A DNA stretch of 37,929 bases from a virus. Under the pieces are notes generated by a model. That model worked only from the letters and a program-made list of their open reading frames with translations, was not told the origin of the DNA and searched no databases. Below, piece after piece: positions 403-37,201 of the stretch (its first letter is position 1; each line of letters begins with the position of its first letter). The position numbers and the translations under genes were made by a program. Location of the stretch: positions 1-37,929 of IMG/VR virus record IMGVR_UViG_3300034073_002127; one strand, 5' to 3'.

Positions 403-555
403 ATGTCCTGCCTCAAACACAACTACCGCCCTGTAAATAACCGATACAAAGACGGTAAGCCAGTCATCTCTGGTGGCGAATGGGTGACCGAGATAAGATG
501 TGAAGTATGTGACAAGAAGTTTGTAGAGCCGAGGTGGAAGGAGAAAGTTATTTAA
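403..555 (+). CDS. Zinc-ribbon-like microprotein (50 aa)
   Basis: The ATG follows the preceding stop by two bases. The 50-residue product has an N-terminal C-x2-H pair (CLKH) and a C-x2-C knuckle (CEVC) about 30 residues later, which fits a small zinc-binding fold. No family is recognised. It is the first of a run of Cys-rich microproteins on this strand (see 1490, 1701, 1826 and 2247). There is no Shine-Dalgarno sequence, as for most genes here. Confidence 0.6.
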   Translation: MSCLKHNYRPVNNRYKDGKPVISGGEWVTEIRCEVCDKKFVEPRWKEKVI

Positions 556-559
556 CAAC

Positions 560-790
560 AAGATTGTCGGTTCGCTCTAGTATATCTGCGACCTATTTGA
601 GTCTGGGACTGGTAGGTTCGACTCCTACAGAAAATAATAGCACTAAGATATACTAGCGAGAGCCGATAATCAAATCAAAGAGGGTGGGAGATGGGGGATA
701 AACCTATAAAGTTCTAGGGCTTTCCTGGGACGGTAGAGGAATGACACGTGGTAAAAATTCATTCCTACTCCCCACCTCCCACTCTCACAA
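560..790 (+). ncRNA. Structured intergenic RNA candidate, two domains, with a T-arm-like hairpin
   Basis: Domain 1: bases 562-587 can pair with 646-671 (22 of 26 identical to the reverse complement; two of the four differences are G-U pairs if the plus strand is transcribed). Its apical loop holds a perfect T-arm-like hairpin, stem 612-616/624-628 with loop TTCGACT, matching the tRNA T-loop consensus. Domain 2: 679-696 pairs with 770-785 (15 of 16 after a 2-base bulge) and encloses a second stem, 733-742 with 761-768. No tRNA acceptor or anticodon arm can be drawn. No coding frame of note crosses the region. The class is unknown to me and the strand is not firmly settled. Confidence 0.5.
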
Positions 791-3302: not shown

Positions 3303-3509
3303 ATGGAAGAACCAATTACATTTTCATCTTCAGATTACGCCACTCGTGCGGATCTTGAAAGTGAAATAGTTAGAGTTTGTGGCAACAATATTGAAGCGAA
3401 CGAAACGGCCGGACATATAATTTCCGGCACCGAGGCAGACCTGAAAAGGCTTGGCCTCTCTTTATCAACCCGTATTTACGGAGTTAAGTGTGAAATAACA
3501 AATGACTAA
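3303..3509 (+). CDS. Hypothetical protein upstream of GroEL (68 aa)
   Basis: A 68-residue acidic protein. It overlaps the start of the chaperonin gene by eight bases, so the two are probably translated together. It sits where a GroES gene would be in a bacterial groESL operon. However, it is shorter than GroES (about 95 residues), and I see neither the mobile-loop hydrophobic triplet nor a beta-barrel pattern. Function unknown. Confidence 0.55.
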   Translation: MEEPITFSSSDYATRADLESEIVRVCGNNIEANETAGHIISGTEADLKRLGLSLSTRIYGVKCEITND

Positions 3510-5109
3510 AAAAATTATATCTGTCGGGAAGGCGTGCAGGGATCAATTATTGGAAGGAGTCAAAATCCTAGATGTTTTAGTGGGTAATACTTTGGGTCCA
3601 AAAGGGCGAAACTGTATTATTCAGCAAAAATACAAAGCACCGCTTATCACCAATGACGGTGTGACTATTGCTCGAAATACTTATTTAGATAATCCGGTGG
3701 CGGATCTTGGCCTGCAAACCATTGTGGAGGCGGCAATGAAGACCAATGAGAAAGCTGGCGACGGCACAAGCACCACAGTTGTATTAGCTTGTAAAGTGGT
3801 AGAAACCTGTTTTGAAAGATTAGCTTATGATGTCCTTGGTGCTGGGGCTGATGCAATGACAATGTTCCGTGAGATACATAAGGCTAAGGAAATTGTTATT
3901 GAAAAACTAAAAGCAATGTCTAGACCGGTGGCTAGTTTTGAAGAGTTAAATCAAATTATTGCGATCTCTTTGGAAAACGAGGAATTTGCCAAGGTGATTG
4001 CTGGAATGATTGAAGCCCTCGGTGAGAAAGGCTATATCTCCGTAGAAGATAATTTTAATACTAAATACTCCATTGAGCCTGAAACCATTACAGGTATGAA
4101 ATTCTATGGAACTTATGCTAGTCCAATTATGATAACTAATACCAAGAAGGAAGCAGTATGGACTGATACCCCTGTTCTTGTGTGTAATCACGAAATAGAA
4201 AACACCGGAGGCCTTACACCATTACTCAAAGAATTAAACGCCAACGGTAAAATGAAATTAGCCATTGTGGCTGAAAAATTTGATAAGCAATTTATTCGAA
4301 GTATTGCTTATTCAATGAAAGTAGCGCGTGAAGGAGCGGTTGGCCCGGACGGAAAGCAATACGAAGCAATGAAAATTCTAGCAGTTAAAGCTCCGTCAAT
4401 GACCACCGAGCAATTAGAAGACGTGGCTGTCTATGTCAAAGGAGCTTTTGTAAATAAGAATCTAGGAGTGGAATTGAATAAAGTCAAATACCAAGACCTT
4501 GGTTTTGCTAAGAAGATTATTGTGAACGAAGATGATGTAATTATTTCTGGTGGTGCTGGTGAGGGTGATTTGGTAGATGAAAGAGTTAAACTGATTGAAG
4601 AGCATTTAGCAATGGAGAAGGACCCAGCTTTTGCCGAAAGATTAAAGAGAAGAATTGGCTCACTCCGTTCTGGTGTGGGCATAATCCGAGTCGGTGCCTC
4701 CACTGAAAGCGAAAGAGGTTATTTGAAATTAAAGATTGAAGATGCTGTAAATGCAGCCAAAGCGGCAATGGCTGAAGGTGTAGTAGCTGGAGGTGGTAAA
4801 GCCCTAGCTCAAATTGCCGAGGAATTAGGTAAGGATAATATCCTGTATGAAATCTTAAAAGCTCCTTATCAGAGAATTCAAGACAATGCTGGTGGTGTAT
4901 TAGATATTCCAGACACTGTGCTTGATCCGGTAAAGGTAACTCGCCTAGCTATCGAGAACGCTTGCTCGGCTTCTGCCTCCCTTATAACCACTGACTCCGC
5001 TATCGCTGAAAAGAAAGAAACCCTCTGGGATATGCTAGATGATAAATTATACCCAAAGGATGATGAAGATTTTAGAAGTGATGCTAATCAGGACGTAAAG
5101 TTCAAATAA
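3502..5109 (+). CDS. groEL: Phage-encoded GroEL-type chaperonin
   Basis: A 535-residue group I chaperonin, likely an ATP-driven folding ring for capsid or other phage proteins. Equatorial ATP-site motifs are intact: TLGPKGR (30-36), NDG (51-53, Asp52), GDGTSTT (86-92, Asp87), an Asp414 in the ED-x2-NA motif equivalent to E. coli Asp398, and VVAGGG near 427-431. The apical domain is divergent. The segment before VKAP carries an insert of about 15 residues (AREGAVGPDGKQ), and the usual GFGDRRK stretch after it is missing. There is no GGM-type C-terminal tail. No GroES gene was seen in the window. Its place before the terminase genes fits a late morphogenesis role. Confidence 0.95.
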   Translation: MTKKIISVGKACRDQLLEGVKILDVLVGNTLGPKGRNCIIQQKYKAPLITNDGVTIARNTYLDNPVADLGLQTIVEAAMKTNEKAGDGTSTTVVLACKVVETCFERLAYDVLGAGADAMTMFREIHKAKEIVIEKLKAMSRPVASFEELNQIIAISLENEEFAKVIAGMIEALGEKGYISVEDNFNTKYSIEPETITGMKFYGTYASPIMITNTKKEAVWTDTPVLVCNHEIENTGGLTPLLKELNANGKMKLAIVAEKFDKQFIRSIAYSMKVAREGAVGPDGKQYEAMKILAVKAPSMTTEQLEDVAVYVKGAFVNKNLGVELNKVKYQDLGFAKKIIVNEDDVIISGGAGEGDLVDERVKLIEEHLAMEKDPAFAERLKRRIGSLRSGVGIIRVGASTESERGYLKLKIEDAVNAAKAAMAEGVVAGGGKALAQIAEELGKDNILYEILKAPYQRIQDNAGGVLDIPDTVLDPVKVTRLAIENACSASASLITTDSAIAEKKETLWDMLDDKLYPKDDEDFRSDANQDVKFK

Positions 5110-5878: not shown

Positions 5879-6253
5879 ATGGCTAAGAAACCAACTATTA
5901 AACAGCAAAGGGCATTGACAAATTTACTAGCAGATGGTGGCTCTAAGGCCTCTGCAATGATTAAAGCTGGTTATTCTCCAAGAACAGCAAGAGATCCAAG
6001 TAAATTATTTGATAGCCCGGTAATGAAACCAGTTATTGATAAACTGGCTCAGCAACTAGAAGATGAACGCCAAGAGGTTTTAGACCGAATGAAAGCTACT
6101 CGTAGCCGAGCAAAATATCGTGACCTAACTTATGCTTTGGATATAGTTACTAAGAATTATCAGCTAGTGACTGGTGGCAGAACAGAGAATGGGGGTATAG
6201 AAGAGTTGGCCACATCTATAAATAATTGGATTAAGAGTTCAAAAAATGACTGA
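5879..6253 (+). CDS. terS: Terminase small subunit-like protein
   Basis: A 124-residue protein directly before the large terminase and overlapping it by eight bases. Residues about 8-45 form a helix-turn-helix-like N-terminal domain with the pattern A-S-A-M-I-K-A-G-Y-S-P-R-T-A common in phage small terminases, followed by a charged helix (about 50-85) that could mediate oligomerisation. It should recognise packaging DNA and recruit the ATPase. Called from position, size and the AGYS HTH pattern. Confidence 0.8.
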   Translation: MAKKPTIKQQRALTNLLADGGSKASAMIKAGYSPRTARDPSKLFDSPVMKPVIDKLAQQLEDERQEVLDRMKATRSRAKYRDLTYALDIVTKNYQLVTGGRTENGGIEELATSINNWIKSSKND

Positions 6254-8612
6254 TGAACAAAGAAACATTTGTCTAAAATTATTAAGCCTATTTGAAATAG
6301 ACGGCAAAAAGGCTAGTGAAGTGGCTACTGATGGCCAGATAGAGATTTTCTTTGAGATAGTATTCCGGGTGCATCCGAGAGTAGAAATTCTAACTGCCAC
6401 TCAGTATGGTAAGAGTTTGTTTGTAGCTTTGGCTAGTATTATTGTGACCTGTATTCAAAAGGAAATGATCTCTGTGGTGGCCCCAACGAATGAAAAGGCG
6501 AAGATTATAATGCGTTACTTCATTGACCACTTAGGGGATAATATCCTATTTTACTCGCAATTAGAAAAAGACTCTAAACTTGACCGCTTGCGGATGGAGG
6601 AAAGCAAAGAGCGAATTAAACTAAAAAATGGCGGTGGTATCTTTGTGGTATCTGTTCAAGCTGGTAATTCTAAAAAGGGTATTGAATCAGCGATGGGTGC
6701 TGGTTCAAAAATAGTCGTGGAAGACGAAGCCGGATTGATTCCTGATAACATTGAGGCTACTGTTTTCCGTATGATTGCCGGTAAAGGAGCCGATGCTTTC
6801 TATTGCAAAATTGGTAATCCCTTTTATCGTAATCATTTTTTACGAAGCTGGCACGATGAAAAATATCATAAAGTTTTTATAGATTATGAACGAGGTTTGA
6901 AAGAAGGCCGTTATACGCAAGAATTTATTGATGAAGCTCGAACTAAACCATTCTTTGATGTGTTGTTTGAGTGTAAGTTTCCAAGTGCTGATGCGATTGA
7001 TACGTCAGGTTATTCTCCATTGATTGTGGAAGAAGTTTTGTTATCTAAAATTCGCAAAGAAGTAGAACTCTTTGGCCGAACATCCTTGTCTTGCGATGTA
7101 GCTGGTGAAGGTAGCAACCAAAGTGTAATTGTTTACCGTGGCCAGAATGGAGCGAAGATTATCTACAAAGAAAACAACCCGGACACAATGAACTTTGCCG
7201 GGGTGATTTTAAAGTTTGCACAAGAATTAAATCCAGATGTAATTTATATTGACAAGGTGGGAATCGGAAAACCAGTGTATGACCGCTTGAAAGAATATCA
7301 AGAGATAGAAACTATTGTCGTGGGTGTAATGGCTGGCGAAAGTGCTGATGATACTGAAAACTTCATAAATAAAAGGGCAGAAATGTTTTGGCGATTAAGG
7401 GAATGGCTGGCTACGGCTGAACTTGAAGGTAACGGTTGGATGGATTTACTCGATGTCCGCTATAAAATTCAGAGTGATAGGAAGGTTAAGATTAAAAGTA
7501 AAGATGAAATGTTGAAGGAGGGAGTGCAAAGCCCGGACTGTTTTGTGGCTGGAACAAATATATTAACTAGAAATGGTGAAGTAAACATAGAAAGTTTATC
7601 TGCTGGTGATAGTGTCATAACCCCTTATGGAGAACGGGAGATACTTAAAAAATGGGAAGTAGAAACTGATAAGCTAATCAAGGTATCTTTCTCTAACGGC
7701 ACAACCTTGACAGGTAAACCAAAACATAAAATACTAACAAAACGAGGCTTTATTCCGCTTGACGCATTACTATTGACTGATATAATAGAAACAAGGAACA
7801 TTTTTTCAAATATATTATGGAAACTAAAAAAGTTATTATTTATAAAGGACGTAAATATTGGCCTACGAAAGCAGGCAGATATTTTTATGCCGACATTTAT
7901 GACGGAAGAGGACAGCGGAAAAAAGAACCACTACATCACAGAGTTTGGCAAGATAATAACAAAGGCAAACAAATTCCTGATGGATATTCTATCCACCACA
8001 TTGATGGAAATACCTTTAACAATAACCCAAAGAATTTACAACTGGTTGAATCAACAAAGCACTCACGCCACCATATGCTGGAACGATTTGATGATAAGGA
8101 CTATAAGAAATCAAATGATAAGCAACTCGAGGCTATCCGTCCGCTTGCCTCTTTATGGCACAAATCCGATGAAGGTAGAAAATGGCACAGAGAACACGCA
8201 AGAAAACAATGGGATAATCCTAAGGTCATCACAGGAAAGTGTATTGAGTGTGGACGAGAATTTGAAGCATACTACAAGACAAAAAAATATTGCAGTAGAA
8301 AATGTGAACAAAAAACAATATGGAAAAATAAAGTGTATAACACTGATAAAAGAATTTGTTTGGTCTGTAAAAAAGAGTTTATGGCAAATCGGCATAGGCC
8401 TACAAGCTGTTGCAGTAGAAAGTGTGGAAGCCATTGGAGGTGGAAAAACAAAAGTATTTAATCTAACTCTTGATAGGGATAATGTTTATTATGCTAATGG
8501 TATTTTAGCGGAAAATTGTGCGGATGCTTTATCCCTAAGTTTTTATAAGCAGACTATCGGCACACCACAGATCAGTCAGTATCGTCCCAAGTGGGCATCA
8601 AAAAGAAAATAG
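6246..8612 (+). CDS. terL: Terminase large subunit interrupted by an intein
   Basis: The 788-codon frame is an extein of 462 residues, normal for TerL, plus a 326-residue intein (432-757). ATPase: Walker A-like TATQYGKS (50-57) and Walker B VVEDEAG (157-163). RNase-H-like nuclease: Asp284 in CDVAGEG, Asp336 in YIDKVG, and the third acidic motif SPD-CADAL. The intein sits exactly between SPD and CADAL and uses Cys758 as the +1 residue. Packaging therefore probably requires splicing to restore the nuclease site. The middle of the intein frame (about residues 520-720) looks like the unintended translation of the HNH gene nested in another frame (7817-8461), yet it contains no stop. Confidence 0.93.
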   Translation: MTDEQRNICLKLLSLFEIDGKKASEVATDGQIEIFFEIVFRVHPRVEILTATQYGKSLFVALASIIVTCIQKEMISVVAPTNEKAKIIMRYFIDHLGDNILFYSQLEKDSKLDRLRMEESKERIKLKNGGGIFVVSVQAGNSKKGIESAMGAGSKIVVEDEAGLIPDNIEATVFRMIAGKGADAFYCKIGNPFYRNHFLRSWHDEKYHKVFIDYERGLKEGRYTQEFIDEARTKPFFDVLFECKFPSADAIDTSGYSPLIVEEVLLSKIRKEVELFGRTSLSCDVAGEGSNQSVIVYRGQNGAKIIYKENNPDTMNFAGVILKFAQELNPDVIYIDKVGIGKPVYDRLKEYQEIETIVVGVMAGESADDTENFINKRAEMFWRLREWLATAELEGNGWMDLLDVRYKIQSDRKVKIKSKDEMLKEGVQSPDCFVAGTNILTRNGEVNIESLSAGDSVITPYGEREILKKWEVETDKLIKVSFSNGTTLTGKPKHKILTKRGFIPLDALLLTDIIETRNIFSNILWKLKKLLFIKDVNIGLRKQADIFMPTFMTEEDSGKKNHYITEFGKIITKANKFLMDILSTTLMEIPLTITQRIYNWLNQQSTHATICWNDLMIRTIRNQMISNSRLSVRLPLYGTNPMKVENGTENTQENNGIILRSSQESVLSVDENLKHTTRQKNIAVENVNKKQYGKIKCITLIKEFVWSVKKSLWQIGIGLQAVAVESVEAIGGGKTKVFNLTLDRDNVYYANGILAENCADALSLSFYKQTIGTPQISQYRPKWASKRK
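7759..7786 (+). promoter_or_regulatory. Promoter inside the intein, driving the nested HNH gene
   Basis: TTGACG (7759-7764), 16 bases, TATAAT (7781-7786). The predicted start (about 7793) lies some 24 bases before the HNH ATG at 7817. The same bases encode the end of intein block B. AT-rich DNA gives chance matches, but a near-consensus pair at this place is suggestive. Confidence 0.5.
7817..8461 (+). CDS. HNH endonuclease with two zinc fingers, nested out of frame in the terL intein
   Basis: A 214-residue complete protein in the frame one base back from terL. HNH domain: IHHIDGN (59-65), then NN-x2-NL (about 69-74) and HSRHH (82-86). The C-terminal part has two Cys4 fingers: C142/C145/C159/C163 and C181/C184/C199/C203. 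Both fingers are intact, so this is a functional-looking gene and not frame noise. The second finger overlaps the bases that encode intein block F, so about 60 bases (8402-8461) are dual coding. No Shine-Dalgarno is seen near the ATG, but a promoter-like pair lies at 7759-7786. Inferred role: homing nuclease cutting intein-less terL alleles. Confidence 0.9.
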   Translation: METKKVIIYKGRKYWPTKAGRYFYADIYDGRGQRKKEPLHHRVWQDNNKGKQIPDGYSIHHIDGNTFNNNPKNLQLVESTKHSRHHMLERFDDKDYKKSNDKQLEAIRPLASLWHKSDEGRKWHREHARKQWDNPKVITGKCIECGREFEAYYKTKKYCSRKCEQKTIWKNKVYNTDKRICLVCKKEFMANRHRPTSCCSRKCGSHWRWKNKSI

Positions 8613-27159: not shown

Positions 27160-28984
27160 TATTAAAAAAATAATAATTGGAGTTCTTGGCTTTGCGGTAG
27201 TTTTTTCTGCTTTACAGTTTTTTACGTCAGAAGATATTAAACTTGGAGCAGCACCTTATAGGATAGAAAGAACATTGATACCGGAAACAGATAGCACCTA
27301 CGACCTTGGCACCACAACTAGACGGTGGCGAACTGGTTATTTTGATACTGTAGATGCAACAAACTATGTAGGCATAACAGCCACTACCACTTGGGGAACT
27401 ATTGTCGGCACTATTACAGATCAAACTGATTTGATAGCTTATGCTACTAGCACCTTTCAGCCTATTGGTTCATATTTAACTGATGAAACCGACCCACTCT
27501 CTCTTCACTTAGACCAAACCACTCCACAAACAGTCACGGGTGGTTCTCCAGTTTTTGATGACGGCATTACGGTTAATGATTATTTCTCAATGAACCACGA
27601 CCTTGGTGGTGGCACTTATGCCAACTTTAATAACGAACCAGTCCCTGGCGAGCCAAACTTTGTTTTTGATATTGTAAAGTATCTAGGGGTTTCTCAGGTA
27701 GGTAGAGGGTATATTACTTTGGGAACTGATGACACAGCTGTCTTAGACCTAGAAGGAGGTATAAACTTTCCAGGCTATGTTGCTTTCTTTGATTATGGAA
27801 ATGTAGACTCCAATGTTTATGGCAACTATGTCCACGATGATAATAACTATGTAAAAGTTCTTGATAGAACCAACGATTTAGCTTTAAGAGTGAAAGGTGG
27901 TGTTAGATTAGAATCCCTAGCTGGTAATGGGGCTGGAGTAGTAGCAGTAGATGATGATGGTAACTTATCTTTTGGTGCTGGTGGTGCTGCTCTCTTAGAT
28001 GGAAGTAATCAGCCGTTTACTGGGGATTTAACAATAAGTAAAACAACTCCTAAACTTACTCTTACTGATTCTGGTGGGTCAACTGGTTATCTCGCATTAG
28101 ATAATACTAATGATAAACTTAAAATTGGTATTGGGTCAACAATAGATTCACCACATATCTATATGAGTCCAAGTGGTTCAGCACCAGTTACCGCTTATAC
28201 AAACACAGGCGGTTCGGGAGATAGAAGGGGATGGGTAACTGTTTCTACAAATATGACTTATGCTAACACCCTAGCAAATATTATAGACGGTTCTCAAAGT
28301 AACAATTTGTATTTTAATACACAATCCGCCACTGGAAAATATTTAAGATTTGATTTTGGTGTTGGTGCAAATTACTGGATTGATAATTTCAAAATATATT
28401 ATAACGGAACTTTTAATGGAGATGGTACTTGGAAAGTACAGGGTAGTAATGATGGTTCTAATTGGACTGATGTTTCTTCAAATTTTACTTGGGGTGGTTC
28501 TGCTGCTGGAACAGAATTTAGTGTGGATTTAATTGATTCGGGGTATAGGTATTATCAGTTTCTTGGAGTTAGTGGTAATATGACCGATGGTTATTACCAA
28601 AGAGAAATTACCTTTAAAATCGGTGTTCCTGGTCCATCTGCAGTAGGCATTTTTACTAGCGATACAACAGAAGCTATAAACCTTAGCGGAACTACTGCAA
28701 CAGATGATGATATATTTATAAGGGCAGATAATAAAAAGCTTTATTTCGGAGCAGGAGATGATGCTTCAATATACTATGACGGCACTAATATGCTTATCAA
28801 TCCGAAGGTCGTAGGAACTGGTATATTAGATGTCGCTGGAGTATTACAGACAGACGGATATAACAGTTCTGACGGAACAGCTGGAATGACTGACACCAGA
28901 AGCTTTAATGATGCCGATGGTAATGCACACGCTGTGACAATCAAAAATGGTTTAATAACTGGATGGGTAGTCACCCCTCCATAA
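27149..28984 (+). CDS. Large fibre-like protein with F5/8-type (discoidin) domain and membrane anchor
   Basis: 611 residues. N-terminal hydrophobic helix (about 8-27). The motif STYDLGTTTRRWRTGYF (about 48-64) is typical of phage tail fibres. A repetitive beta region follows, with ATSTFQPIGSYLT-type spacers. Residues about 345-490 form a discoidin-like carbohydrate-binding domain: ANIIDGSQSNNLYF, YLRFDFG, WKVQGSNDGSNWTDVSS, YYQFLGVSG. The C-terminus has short strand repeats and ends in GLITGWVVTPP, a frequent fibre ending. Probably surface-binding. The membrane segment is unexpected for a virion fibre and recurs in three other proteins here. Confidence 0.7.
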   Translation: MLNDIKKIIIGVLGFAVVFSALQFFTSEDIKLGAAPYRIERTLIPETDSTYDLGTTTRRWRTGYFDTVDATNYVGITATTTWGTIVGTITDQTDLIAYATSTFQPIGSYLTDETDPLSLHLDQTTPQTVTGGSPVFDDGITVNDYFSMNHDLGGGTYANFNNEPVPGEPNFVFDIVKYLGVSQVGRGYITLGTDDTAVLDLEGGINFPGYVAFFDYGNVDSNVYGNYVHDDNNYVKVLDRTNDLALRVKGGVRLESLAGNGAGVVAVDDDGNLSFGAGGAALLDGSNQPFTGDLTISKTTPKLTLTDSGGSTGYLALDNTNDKLKIGIGSTIDSPHIYMSPSGSAPVTAYTNTGGSGDRRGWVTVSTNMTYANTLANIIDGSQSNNLYFNTQSATGKYLRFDFGVGANYWIDNFKIYYNGTFNGDGTWKVQGSNDGSNWTDVSSNFTWGGSAAGTEFSVDLIDSGYRYYQFLGVSGNMTDGYYQREITFKIGVPGPSAVGIFTSDTTEAINLSGTTATDDDIFIRADNKKLYFGAGDDASIYYDGTNMLINPKVVGTGILDVAGVLQTDGYNSSDGTAGMTDTRSFNDADGNAHAVTIKNGLITGWVVTPP

Positions 28985-28999
28985 TAATAAAATAAAAAT

Positions 29000-29371
29000 A
29001 TGAGTATATTTGATGGACAAATAAATGAGAGTGAAGGGGTAAAGATTTATAAGAATCTTTGTGCAAAAGCTCCTAATCAAAAAATGGGTGAGGAGAATAG
29101 GTGTATATCAGCTTTTACCGATTTATGGGGAAGTGATGTAGTAGATATTCCTGATACTAATTATCGGACAGTGGCTAATCCAATTAGCCGAGAGGTAGCA
29201 AGTGAAGTCTTGGGTTATTTAGGCACGGAGGCATATAAAATCTTTGCTTCCCATTCAATGTGGCAGGATTCTATTATGATTATCAATCCTGACTGGAAGA
29301 AATTAGTGCCACCTTATGAAGTTATCTTTAACGAAGATGGTTCAGCCCAATTAAAAGATGCAGAAGAATAA
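29000..29371 (+). CDS. Hypothetical protein (123 aa)
   Basis: A 123-residue mixed alpha/beta protein with no recognised motif, following the fibre genes. Its C-terminus overlaps the start of the next gene by 14 bases, so the two are likely coexpressed. Perhaps a fibre accessory or early lysis-linked protein. Confidence 0.5.
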   Translation: MSIFDGQINESEGVKIYKNLCAKAPNQKMGEENRCISAFTDLWGSDVVDIPDTNYRTVANPISREVASEVLGYLGTEAYKIFASHSMWQDSIMIINPDWKKLVPPYEVIFNEDGSAQLKDAEE

Positions 29372-29624
29372 TCAAAAAATAATAACAGGGTTGCTGATTG
29401 GCGAGTGCTTACTGGCTACTCTTTATACTTGGCTCGTTGGTGAGTCTTGGTTATCGGGTATCTTAATCTCCCTGTTTGGAGTGATAAGTGTCTGGGAATA
29501 TGTCTCACTTAAAATCACAGGTAAGACCGTATCTAAAAGATACGAATTGAGTTCAAAGAAAACAGGAATGTCGGTTATCTTGGCTATTTTGCTAAGTTTA
29601 TTGTTCGCACATTTGACAATCTAG
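29358..29624 (+). CDS. Three-helix membrane protein, holin candidate
   Basis: 88 residues with three hydrophobic segments (about 8-28, 30-50 and 70-86) and a charged loop between the second and third. Size and topology suit a class I holin. It lies upstream of, but some 1.7 kb away from, the protease lysis cassette at 31298, so an alternative membrane role is possible. It overlaps the preceding gene. Confidence 0.5.
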   Translation: MQKNNQKIITGLLIGECLLATLYTWLVGESWLSGILISLFGVISVWEYVSLKITGKTVSKRYELSSKKTGMSVILAILLSLLFAHLTI

Positions 29625-29642
29625 ACGATTCTATACGTCTAT
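29622..29642. promoter_or_regulatory. Inverted repeat TAGACG...CGTCTA before the HNH gene
   Basis: TAGACG and CGTCTA with an 8-base centre (29622-29641) lie 20-odd bases upstream of the -10 at 29663. It could be an operator for this promoter or, as RNA, a short terminator for the holin-like gene. Confidence 0.35.
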
Positions 29643-29662
29643 AAATAAGATAGATAATATTA

Positions 29663-29668
29663 TATAAT
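29663..29668 (+). promoter_or_regulatory. -10 element giving a leaderless HNH mRNA
   Basis: TATAAT (29663-29668). The A of the ATG at 29675 is seven bases after it, the usual start site, so the transcript would be leaderless. No good -35 is seen. Confidence 0.4.
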
Positions 29669-29674
29669 AGAGAA

Positions 29675-30043
29675 ATGACAAAAGAAAAAGACTTAAAACG
29701 ACATAGAGAGTGGGCAAAAAATAATCAAGAGTATGCTCAACTTTACCATTTCTATTGGAGACAAAAGAGAAAAAATGGTGAATCTACTAAAAGAAAAATA
29801 ATTCTCTACAAAAATAAACTAGAAAGTTTTTTAAGACGATCTGCTTGGAATAAAATTAAGGATGAGATTAAATTTGGCAGGATGAAAAAATTACCTTGTG
29901 AGATTTGTAAGACAACTAAAAATATAGAAGCTCATCATTATTTGGGTTATGAGAAAGAAAATTGGTTAAAGGTCAAATGGTTATGTATTAAACATCACAG
30001 AGCGGAACATCGTAGTTTTAAAATAAAAAAAACGACCCCATAA
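29675..30043 (+). CDS. Small HNH nuclease-like protein (122 aa)
   Basis: The N-terminal 70 residues are basic and helical (DNA contact likely). The C-terminal HNH/treble-clef region reads C75-x2-C78, then H87-H88 in EAHHYLGY, N96-W97, C104 and H107-H108. This matches small HNH proteins in which Cys pairs hold zinc and the HH carries catalysis. It lies directly upstream of the structured RNA at 30074. Whether it belongs to that cassette, or is an independent homing-type nuclease, is open. Confidence 0.75.
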   Translation: MTKEKDLKRHREWAKNNQEYAQLYHFYWRQKRKNGESTKRKIILYKNKLESFLRRSAWNKIKDEIKFGRMKKLPCEICKTTKNIEAHHYLGYEKENWLKVKWLCIKHHRAEHRSFKIKKTTP

Positions 30044-30050
30044 TGTCGTT
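30024..30050 (-). terminator. Intrinsic terminator oriented leftward
   Basis: AACGAC (30031-30036) pairs with GTCGTT (30045-30050). Read on the minus strand the stem is followed by a T-run (from the A-run at 30024-30032). No leftward gene to the right is evident, so its substrate is unclear. On the plus strand its U-tract is weak. Confidence 0.5.
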
Positions 30051-30073
30051 AAACTTATAGTTCTTTAACACAA

Positions 30074-30292
30074 GTTAGTAATTCAATTCAGGGCAGACTA
30101 AACGTCTACAATGAATTAGACTTTGGAGAAATATGATGGCAACATAATTGTAAGGTGATGCTAACGCACCCGAGCAAGAATTAGTTTCTCCGAGAATTAC
30201 ATCGGCTGAAAGTCCGTCAGCGGGTGGCGAGCCACGCTAAGACCTTAAATGGCAACTGTTGTGAAGTGTCTGCTTTGAATTGAATTACTAAC
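30074..30292 (+). ncRNA. Structured RNA closed by a 25-bp stem
   Basis: Bases 30074-30098 pair with 30268-30292 over 25 positions; the only two deviations are G-U on the plus strand. Inside are stem GGAGAAA/TTTCTCC (about 30125-30131/30185-30191) with a GGTG/CACC hairpin, GCTGA/TCAGC and AGCG/CGCT enclosing TGG-CGAG-CCA. Such long-stem, multi-hairpin architecture between HNH-type genes suggests a functional RNA of a mobile element. I do not recognise a group I or II intron core, RNase P, tmRNA or HEARO pattern. Confidence 0.6.
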
Positions 30293-30308
30293 ATATAGGG
30301 GGTCAAAA

Positions 30309-30470
30309 ATGATAATCTGTCTGCATAGATTCACAGGCGACTGCCCTGATTGCGGTGAGGATTTGGACACAAATCACCACCCCAACAATCTGGACTGTCG
30401 GAACTATACGCCTATCAGTGTTCACATTGAGGAGGTGCAAGATGATAACAGCACTACTGGCGGTGTGTGA
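30309..30470 (+). CDS. Zinc-ribbon microprotein in the cassette (53 aa)
   Basis: Starts after AGGGGG, about nine bases upstream of the ATG. The 53 residues contain CLHR, CPDCG, HH and DC: a C-H-C-C-type zinc cluster (Cys12/Cys15 knuckle). The 3' end overlaps the next gene by 29 bases. No family is recognised. Confidence 0.6.
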   Translation: MIICLHRFTGDCPDCGEDLDTNHHPNNLDCRNYTPISVHIEEVQDDNSTTGGV

Positions 30471-30738
30471 GAAGTTTAAGCTCCACCCTGTCGTAGTGTT
30501 TGCTCTAGCACTTCACTACAATGAACGGCACTGGAGTAACAAGCGTGTTCACGAATACTTCGTCTCTTGGCTAGAACAAGATGAAGAAATGGAAGACACG
30601 ATGAGGTTGACAGAAATCCCCAAATTCATTGAGGATTACTGCATCGACCTGATGGCTGGAATTACTGTCCTGCCGAAATGGTTCACGGAGAAAACCAAAC
30701 AACTGGAGGCACAGAATGAATTGGACAGTGCATCATAG
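30442..30738 (+). CDS. Hypothetical helical protein in the cassette (98 aa)
   Basis: I choose the ATG at 30442 because GAGGAGG lies seven to twelve bases upstream, rather than an earlier in-frame ATG at 30355. The 98 residues are mainly helical, with Trp and His (HYNERHWSNKRVHEYF) in the middle and an acidic patch. It overlaps both neighbours. No motif known to me. Confidence 0.6.
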   Translation: MITALLAVCEKFKLHPVVVFALALHYNERHWSNKRVHEYFVSWLEQDEEMEDTMRLTEIPKFIEDYCIDLMAGITVLPKWFTEKTKQLEAQNELDSAS

Positions 30739-30961
30739 GAAGGAGAAGTCTCGGGGAGGTGATAACTCCCAGAGAAATACGGCTTTGGTTCCACAATCAA
30801 GGCACGTGGCGTGGCATATTCTGAAAGGAACAATGCCATTAGAGAAGCTCTGCTTCTACATCAACACCTTTCTCATTGACCCCGACTACGAGATACAGCT
30901 CGTGCAGAAGCACCCGCCTGTGTCTCCTGACCAACTGGATTTGCCGTTAGGACACTCCTAA
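30716..30961 (+). CDS. Small HNH-like protein of the cassette (81 aa)
   Basis: Residues 6-7 (HH), GGDNSQRN (14-21) and H30/H34 give the H-x-S-x-GG-x-N ... N ... H-x3-H pattern of minimal HNH nucleases. There are no Cys pairs. At 81 residues it is only the HNH core, so it may cut or nick as part of a complex, perhaps with the upstream proteins or RNA. It starts inside the previous gene and is followed by a hairpin. Confidence 0.65.
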   Translation: MNWTVHHRKEKSRGGDNSQRNTALVPQSRHVAWHILKGTMPLEKLCFYINTFLIDPDYEIQLVQKHPPVSPDQLDLPLGHS

Positions 30962-30977
30962 CGATAACCCACGCTTT

Positions 30978-30997
30978 GCCCTGTGCGATAACAGGGC
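30978..30997 (+). terminator. Hairpin closing the cassette
   Basis: GCCCTGT (30978-30984) pairs perfectly with ACAGGGC (30991-30997), loop GCGATA. The following bases are A/T-rich but lack a clear T-run. Confidence 0.4.
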
Positions 30998-31061
30998 TAA
31001 ATACCAATGATTTTATTAACGTTCTGGGCTTATAAAATACCCAGACACAATTTATAAGCAA

Positions 31062-31301
31062 ATGGATCAACAACAAAAAGATCACGACAATTTAATAAGG
31101 TTTGAAACAAAGCTGGACCAGATTTTGGCACAGACAATTAAAACCAACGGTCGAGTCACAAAACTTGAGGGTTGGAAAATGTATATATCAGGGGGATTAG
31201 CACTCTTCTGCCTGATCATTTTACCAGTTATTTTTATTACTGTTCGGGATTCTTTTAATACTAGAGATATGGTAATTGAGCATATTGCTAAAGACAAATG
31301 A
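31062..31301 (+). CDS. XhlA-like membrane protein, lysis accessory (79 aa)
   Basis: Residues about 1-38 form an amphipathic charged helix (RFETKLDQILAQTIK, then LEGWKMY) and 42-62 a single transmembrane helix, the layout of XhlA-type haemolysin/holin partners. It overlaps the first papain-like protease gene by four bases. Two interleaved inverted repeats (31022-31060) lie directly upstream. Likely role: membrane component of lysis. Confidence 0.6.
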   Translation: MDQQQKDHDNLIRFETKLDQILAQTIKTNGRVTKLEGWKMYISGGLALFCLIILPVIFITVRDSFNTRDMVIEHIAKDK

Positions 31302-33278: not shown

Positions 33279-33595
33279 TGTGGCAGGAAGGCCTGTCTGG
33301 TCTCAAGGTAGCACAATGGGGGTAATCGTCTATCATTTTCAGTAGCCGAGGAATAACCACCGCCTAAGCATAAATAATGGCCTTGAGCGGGGCTTCCTGT
33401 CACAAACTTTGCTCGCTATTCTGACAGCCGATCTAGTAGGTGCTTAATTGCAAGGAACGACCGATACATCGTCTAGTGGCGTGACGGTTCCAATTATACC
33501 GGGAAAAAATTTGGACTATAATTTCGTGCTTCGCCTGATTGCAAAGCATCGAGCGAGAACCCCCTAGCACCTAAAAAGAATAGGGGTTTTTTGCT
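33279..33595 (+). ncRNA. Structured RNA ending in an intrinsic terminator
   Basis: Domain 1 is closed by a 12-bp stem (33279-33290/33393-33404, one G-U on this strand), with CTCAAGG/CCTTGAG (33302-33308/33381-33387) inside. Domain 2: CTCGCT (33412-33417) with AGCGAG (33552-33557), and TAGGTGCT (33437-33444) with AGCACCTA (33566-33573). These last two pairings interleave, so they form a pseudoknot. AGCACCTA sits in the loop of the terminator hairpin (33558-33566/33581-33588, then a T-run). Local hairpins lie at 33454-33491 and 33527-33548. The class is unknown to me. No gene of note is present here. Confidence 0.6.
33558..33592 (+). terminator. Intrinsic terminator at the end of the lysis/RNA region
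   Basis: AACCCCCTA ... TAGGGG followed by a TTTTTT run (33587-33592). The 14-base loop contains the bases that can pair far upstream at 33437-33444. Confidence 0.75.
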
Positions 33596-33669
33596 ACCTC
33601 AATATTTTTTATAGTATTTTTTATGTTGATATTTAAGGGTATTTTAGAAAATAGTCAGATGAAATGGAG

Positions 33670-33678
33670 TTTTCCACA
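33670..33678 (+). promoter_or_regulatory. DnaA-box-like site TTTTCCACA
   Basis: TTTTCCACA followed by G, nine bases upstream of the -35 of the next promoter. Confidence 0.4.
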
Positions 33679-33687
33679 GCCCCACGC

Positions 33688-33715
33688 TTGTTATTATAAT
33701 TTTATAATATATAAT
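33688..33715 (+). promoter_or_regulatory. Promoter of the replication/recombination operon
   Basis: TTGTTA (33688-33693), 16 bases, TATAAT (33710-33715); the expected start is about 33722, leaving a 33-base leader before the ATG at 33755. A second TATAAT lies at 33703-33708. Confidence 0.5.
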
Positions 33716-33754
33716 ATATGAAATGGTCGATATTATTAAATTAAAAACAAGCAA

Positions 33755-37111: not shown

Positions 37112-37122
37112 ATATATATATG

Positions 37123-37201
37123 ACCGCGCTAAATTTTTTAAAAATTGAAAACTGTAGGCAAGAGAAAACTGTTAGCGCGGTTACATCTTGTCTGCAGTTT
37201 T
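37123..37201. promoter_or_regulatory. Interleaved inverted repeats before the initiator gene
   Basis: Repeat A: ACCGCGCTAA (37123-37132) and TTAGCGCGGT (37172-37181), 10 bp perfect. Repeat B: 37148-37163 with 37186-37201, 14 of 16. Order A-B-A'-B', so RNA would form a pseudoknot. GAAAACTGT is also directly repeated (37147-37155, 37164-37172). It may be an operator/origin element or an RNA leader control of the initiator gene. Confidence 0.55.

What the first reader, a model, noticed from the sequence alone, without database searches (positions are those of the whole stretch)
30052..30997. RNA with a 25-bp closing stem linked to a Zn microprotein and an HNH gene
A 219-base structured RNA, whose only imperfect closing pairs are G-U on the plus strand, precedes three overlapping small genes with real Shine-Dalgarno sites and a composition unlike the phage. 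The last is a minimal HNH. Flanking it upstream is another HNH gene. This looks like an undescribed mobile or RNA-guided-type cassette.
Basis: partly seen in the sequence, partly recalled or inferred. Interest (0 to 1): 0.8.

Follow-up and report, generated by a model that had tools for sequence, protein, structure and literature searches.

The report
Stem-closed phage RNA behind boxA leader
A phage carries an undescribed 219-base folded RNA, closed by a 25-base-pair stem and preceded by the same kind of signal that starts ribosomal RNA transcription, directly in front of three small foreign-looking genes; it is probably a stable noncoding RNA, not an RNA-guided nuclease.

Summary
Window 30074-30292 folds far better than shuffles (z -6.7). 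Its 25-bp closing stem has 23 Watson-Crick and 2 G-U pairs. Three overlapping, purifying-selected genes with Shine-Dalgarno sites and foreign composition (GC3 0.54-0.60, other phage genes tested 0.24-0.42) follow it. One relative was found, in a circular 46-kb phage (G001) that otherwise shares almost nothing. There the RNA keeps every strong-helix pair, through three G-U-type changes and one fully compensatory change, and keeps all three genes. The upstream HNH gene is absent from that phage, leaving an empty site, so it is a separate insertion.

New here: a perfect match to the published rRNA antitermination signal boxA (GYTCTTTAANA) lies 4 nt before the stem, after a small conserved hairpin. 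Its relaxed form GTTNTTTAACA occurs exactly twice in each phage, always just before a long-stem RNA; in G001 the second such RNA contains a tRNA (Rfam).

The best-supported reading is a stable phage ncRNA made from an rRNA-like leader and probably cut out at the stem, with the genes co-transcribed. Rfam, retron, TnpB, intron and Ro60 tests are negative. The RNA's function is unknown, and with two sequences covariation support is limited. Nothing supports an RNA-guided system.

The parts
30031..30050 (+). small 6-bp hairpin AACGAC/GTCGTT upstream of boxA (boxB-like position); pairing kept in G001
   Evidence: fold -5.9 and -6.3 kcal/mol in the two phages, z -6.8 and -3.9; alignment
30060..30070 (+). 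boxA-like signal GTTCTTTAACA, exact match to published consensus GYTCTTTAANA; the only exact match in the window and likewise in G001
   Evidence: consensus from PMC5725501
30074..30292 (+). 219-nt structured RNA: closing stem 30074-30098/30268-30292, hairpin 30104-30108/30117-30121, arm starting at 30122 that closes at 30193 with variable tip, further small hairpins
   Evidence: folds z -6.65 and -7.22 in the two phages; pair-preserving changes
30309..30470 (+). 53-aa Cys/His microprotein (possible Zn binder)
   Evidence: ORF; dN 0.008, dS 0.173 vs G001
30442..30738 (+). 98-aa protein, no relative found outside G001, probably helical
   Evidence: ORF (listed there from an upstream GTG); dN 0.020, dS 0.220; helical low-confidence model
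30716..30961 (+). 81-aa HNH-like protein (H6-H7, N21, H30)
   Evidence: PF01844 15.2 bits, below cut-off; 17.9 bits on the genome search; dN 0.021, dS 0.126
30978..30997 (+). 7-bp hairpin GCCCTGT/ACAGGGC at the 3' end; similarity between the two phages stops at 31003, 6 nt beyond
   Evidence: fold; BLAST limits

Best explanation
The RNA is a stable, trans-acting phage noncoding RNA made from an rRNA-like transcription leader. A hairpin plus boxA in the nascent transcript would recruit host Nus factors (NusB/S10) so that polymerase reads through the structured RNA. The 25-bp closing stem works like the leader-trailer helix of pre-rRNA: it is cut by a double-strand RNase (RNase III type), freeing a multi-branched core and leaving an mRNA whose Shine-Dalgarno site lies just after the stem for the three small proteins. 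The proteins are co-expressed and may bind or act with the RNA. Shown: RNA fold, pair preservation, exact boxA match and its position, coding selection, linkage in two phages. Inferred: boxA function, processing, stability, action in trans, and any RNA-protein partnership.
For: Fold z -6.7 and -7.2 in the two phages. All 5 substituted nucleotides in the strong helices keep pairing: 3 G-U-type changes and one A-U to G-C double change; 0 of 41 strong-helix pairs broken. Exact match to boxA consensus GYTCTTTAANA (PMC5725501) 4 nt before the stem, about 0.5 expected per genome on both strands. The relaxed motif GTTNTTTAACA occurs exactly twice in each phage, and all four copies lie directly upstream of a long-closing-stem RNA (stems). 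In G001 the second RNA holds a tRNA (Rfam tRNA 36.9 bits, gathering 29), so in these phages a boxA-like motif plus closing stem carries a known kind of noncoding RNA. rRNA precursors combine boxB and boxA leader elements with a leader-trailer helix that RNase III cuts (PMC10250234).
Against: Only two RNA sequences are known. Random placement of the same changes inside the helices leaves no pair broken in about 7% of trials, so covariation support is modest. The second boxA-like site (GTTATTTAACA) departs from the consensus at C4, one of the two positions changed (together with T6) in the boxA mutant of E. coli suhB. The host is unknown, so its true boxA is unknown. The RNA sits directly before the operon's start codon, as a cis-regulatory leader would. 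No expression data.
Confidence: 0.4

Rival explanations
1. The RNA is a cis-acting leader that controls expression of the three-gene operon, for example through binding of the Cys/His microprotein to its own leader, or through the closing stem controlling access to the ribosome site just behind it.
For: The stem ends only a few nt before the Shine-Dalgarno site, and the RNA is contiguous with the operon in both phages.
Against: The SD and start codon are outside the stem. 219 nt with a 25-bp stem is unusually elaborate for a leader, and no riboswitch or leader family of Rfam matches. The other stem-closed RNAs of these phages are not followed by homologues of these genes.
Confidence: 0.27
2. 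The RNA is a tRNA- or rRNA-derived decoy that soaks up a host or defence factor (anticodon nuclease, Nus factor, RNase), one unit of a modular RNA array like the tRNA-like units elsewhere in these phages.
For: The sister RNAs carry T-arms and, in G001, a tRNA with an abnormal 22-nt anticodon loop. RNA units are swapped or inserted cleanly between the boxA-like motif and neighbours.
Against: The RNA at 30074 has no T-arm and no tRNA match.
Confidence: 0.17
3. The RNA and the HNH-like protein form a mobile or RNA-guided cassette (IscB/HEARO-like or intron-like).
For: RNA, HNH-like gene and foreign composition travel together in two phages, and similarity stops right after a 3' hairpin.
Against: Rfam HEARO, group I and group II models do not match even at E 10; no TNB domain and no RT in either phage. 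The HNH-like protein is 81 aa, while HEARO/IscB effectors carry RuvC plus HNH. The shared block also includes ordinary phage genes, and no empty site for RNA plus genes was found.
Confidence: 0.06
4. The closing stem is a DNA-level inverted repeat (miniature transposon or replication/packaging hairpin), not an RNA.
For: It is among the top two inverted repeats of the window within 600 nt.
Against: Both departures in the window and all three stem changes in G001 are G-U compatible on the plus strand. An interior arm shows a compensatory change, and the plus strand folds better than the minus strand.
Confidence: 0.05

Closest known systems
Bacterial rRNA operon leader and leader-trailer helix (boxB-boxA-processing stem)
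   Same: Small hairpin, then exact boxA consensus, then a 25-bp stem that brackets a structured RNA (PMC10250234).
   Different: The RNA inside is 169 nt and matches no rRNA family in Rfam; no boxC was identified; it is followed by protein genes; it is in a phage.
Lambdoid phage nut sites (boxA-boxB)
   Same: Phage-borne boxA with a nearby hairpin.
   Different: The hairpin lies before boxA rather than after it (nut order from general knowledge). No N-like protein was identified, but none was searched for. A long closing stem follows.
HEARO / IscB omega RNA
   Same: Structured RNA upstream of an HNH-motif gene.
   Different: No Rfam HEARO match and an 81-aa protein instead of a RuvC-HNH effector.
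YrlA / bacterial Y RNAs
   Same: Long closing stem; sister RNAs of these phages carry tRNA-like domains.
   Different: No Rfam match and no Ro60/TROVE gene in either phage; the RNA of this finding has no T-arm.
Retron ncRNA (msr-msd with a1/a2 closing stem)
   Same: Long closing stem upstream of an operon.
   Different: No reverse transcriptase in either phage.

Membership tests
rRNA-type boxA antitermination leader | boxA consensus GYTCTTTAANA in the leader | tested here: met
   exact match at 30060-30070 and in G001, one per genome, about 0.5 expected
rRNA-type boxA antitermination leader | Nus factor recruitment / antitermination | not testable with these tools
   needs ChIP or a reporter assay; the host is unknown
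rRNA-type boxA antitermination leader | long leader-trailer helix around the RNA | tested here: met
   25-bp stem, kept by pair-preserving changes
rRNA-type boxA antitermination leader | the RNA product is ribosomal RNA | tested here: not met
   no rRNA family of Rfam matches the stretch at E up to 10; so it works like, but is not, an rRNA unit
HEARO/IscB | HEARO/omega RNA covariance match | tested here: not met
   no match at E up to 10
HEARO/IscB | RuvC plus HNH effector | tested here: not met
   linked gene is an 81-aa HNH-like protein with no other domain; no TNB domain in either phage
group I or II intron | conserved catalytic core (Rfam) | tested here: not met
   no match at E up to 10
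retron | reverse transcriptase gene | tested here: not met
   PF00078 absent in both phages; control rings in 4 of 14 genomes
type III toxin-antitoxin RNA | tandem RNA repeats before an RNase toxin | tested here: not met
   no tandem repeats at 29900-31100
Y RNA / YrlA | Ro60 partner and tRNA-like domain | tested here: not met
   no TROVE domain in either phage record; no T-arm in this RNA
HNH endonuclease family (third gene) | PF01844 above gathering score | tested here: inconclusive
   15.2 and 17.9 bits, cut-off 21.4; motif residues H6-H7/N21/H30 present

The most novel reading that the evidence does not exclude
These phages carry a previously undescribed class of stem-closed noncoding RNA modules driven by rRNA-type boxA leaders, in which different RNA cargos (tRNA-like or novel multi-branched RNA) are exchanged inside or next to the same processing stems; the RNA at 30074-30292 is a new trans-acting RNA partnered with the three small proteins.
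Probability: 0.25. Interest if true: 0.8.

Novelty: new variant of a known kind. Interest (0 to 1): 0.55.

Why it matters
If boxA drives these RNAs, a phage is using the host's ribosomal-RNA transcription machinery to make its own stable RNAs, a use of Nus factors beyond rRNA and lambda-type antitermination. It would also give a sequence signature (boxA plus closing stem) for finding structured RNAs in phage metagenomes; in these two phages ARAGORN called none of the units, and Rfam recognised only the tRNA inside one of them.

Tried and rejected
RNA-guided (IscB/TnpB), intron, retron, type III toxin-antitoxin and Y RNA readings were each tested and not met. Patterns for the RNA and degenerate patterns for the HNH found no further member in viral contigs beyond G001 (the other hits are 16-base matches in sequence that shows no other likeness to the RNA). 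The two genome-contig scans gave no family member: one no relative, one 11 hits without protein similarity. HNH profile searches of 1,294 genomes in four phyla gave two hits at E 7e-4: one judged chance on inspection, the other a 46-residue frame with an internal stop that was not examined further. Phage and plasmid collections: nothing. The RNA model in 12 genomes or records reached through my loci: nothing. AlphaFold models of the HNH-like and 98-aa proteins are too poor for fold searches (pLDDT 51 and 61), so none was run. I first suspected, from memory, a candidate-phyla HNH family; the pattern searches gave no support and I dropped it.

Full report
Observation. The stretch 30074-30292 is a 219-nt inverted-repeat-bounded sequence. 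With short flanks (30065-30300) its plus-strand RNA folds at -79.6 kcal/mol, against -51.5 for shuffles (z -6.65, 0 of 200); the minus strand reaches z -5.6. The closing arms are 25 nt with 23 Watson-Crick and 2 G-U pairs, and are listed second among the inverted repeats of the window within 600 nt. Three overlapping genes follow.

A single relative. Searches of viral contigs with the proteins and RNA patterns found one relative, IMGVR_UViG_3300035670_000369 (G001), a 46.4-kb record with a 112-bp end repeat, hence circular. It shares with the window 28947-29628 (94%, its end repeat 100%) and 30032-31003 (93%) plus a few short pieces elsewhere; the rest of the two phages is different at DNA level. 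In G001 the sequence runs directly from the end of the 29358-29624 gene into the hairpin-boxA-RNA, without the 29675-30043 HNH gene. That gene is therefore an independent insertion (free-standing homing endonuclease is my inference) and not part of the RNA cassette.

RNA-level conservation. Outside a replaced arm tip there are 8 substitutions between the two RNAs. Five of them fall in the strong helices (closing stem, first hairpin, long arm), and none breaks a pair: three are G-U-type and one pair changes from A-U to G-C on both sides. 0 of 41 pairs break in either phage. Random placement within the helices gives no break in 7% of trials, so this alone is modest. With the fold z-scores of both phages (-6.65, -7.22) and the strand-specific G-U pairs, I regard the plus-strand RNA as real.

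Genes. dN is well below dS for all three genes, with third-position changes the commonest. GC3 is 0.54-0.60 against 0.24-0.42 in the other phage genes tested. A foreign origin is therefore likely, yet two genomes keep the genes next to the RNA. The third is HNH-like by motif but sub-threshold. The other two have no convincing relatives in Pfam, PHROGs, NCBIfam or PADLOC.

Leader. Four nucleotides before the stem is GTTCTTTAACA, which fits the boxA consensus GYTCTTTAANA (PMC5725501) exactly. It is the only exact match in the window and again the only one in G001; about 0.5 are expected per genome on both strands, and the chance that such a match falls within 20 nt upstream of a given stem on the same strand is about 1 in 10,000 (my estimate from those numbers). 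A 6-bp hairpin precedes it in both phages. rRNA precursors carry boxB and boxA in the leader and a long leader-trailer helix that RNase III cuts (PMC10250234).

A class within these phages. The relaxed motif GTTNTTTAACA occurs exactly twice in each phage, and every copy precedes a long-closing-stem RNA. In the window the other copy (547) precedes 562-671, an imperfect stem with 36-nt arms (listed first) enclosing a perfect tRNA T-arm GTAGG-TTCGACT-CCTAC by sequence (the MFE fold does not itself form that arm), followed by a second stem-closed unit at about 681-789. In G001 the motif at 33590 runs straight into a unit whose closing-stem arms are 96-97% identical to those of 681-789 but whose interior is a tRNA (Rfam 36.9 bits, gathering 29) with a 22-nt anticodon loop. 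The window's 562-671 unit is thus missing in G001 at a clean joint, and the interior of the next unit is exchanged. These facts suggest modular RNA units behind boxA-like leaders; the RNA of this finding would be one more. The caveat is that GTTATTTAACA departs from consensus boxA at C4, so an alternative, such as an operator or promoter element, is open for those sites.

Mechanism. The reading that explains most is a noncoding RNA transcribed with Nus-factor help and excised at its closing stem, with the mRNA of the three proteins starting just downstream. Whether the RNA then acts in trans, and whether the three proteins are its partners, is inference. A cis-regulatory leader is the main rival. 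RNA-guided, intron, retron, type III toxin-antitoxin and Y-RNA readings were tested and not met.

Limits. Searches in phage and plasmid collections and 1,294 bacterial genomes found nothing convincing; one weak HNH hit was not followed.

Noticed in passing
window 547-671: BoxA-like GTTATTTAACA followed by an RNA with a long imperfect closing stem (z -6.3) that encloses a perfect tRNA T-arm sequence (GTAGG-TTCGACT-CCTAC); not called by ARAGORN or Rfam. Absent from the equivalent place in G001 at a clean joint.
   Followed up: partly
window about 681-789; G001 33607-33735 (L025 2607-2735): Stem-closed RNA units whose closing-stem arms are 96-97% identical between the two phages while the interior is completely exchanged; the G001 interior is a tRNA (Rfam 36.9 bits) with a 22-nt anticodon loop containing AGGACGG, which could pair with the acceptor 3' strand CCGTCCT (a permuted or pseudoknotted tRNA-like form).
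   Followed up: partly
window 29629-30031: Insertion carrying a 122-aa HNH gene (phrog_2340) in a spot where G001 has an intact empty site; looks like a free-standing homing endonuclease gene.
   Followed up: yes
window 6246-8612: Terminase large subunit with a Hint (intein-type) domain match at residues 432-465.
   Followed up: no
window 3502-5109: Phage-encoded GroEL-like chaperonin; the best listed phage-collection matches are about 33% identical.
   Followed up: no
window 37118-37186: Hairpin-forming inverted repeat with 22-nt arms (CCGCGCTAA...TTAGCGCGG) in an AT-rich intergenic stretch.
   Followed up: no
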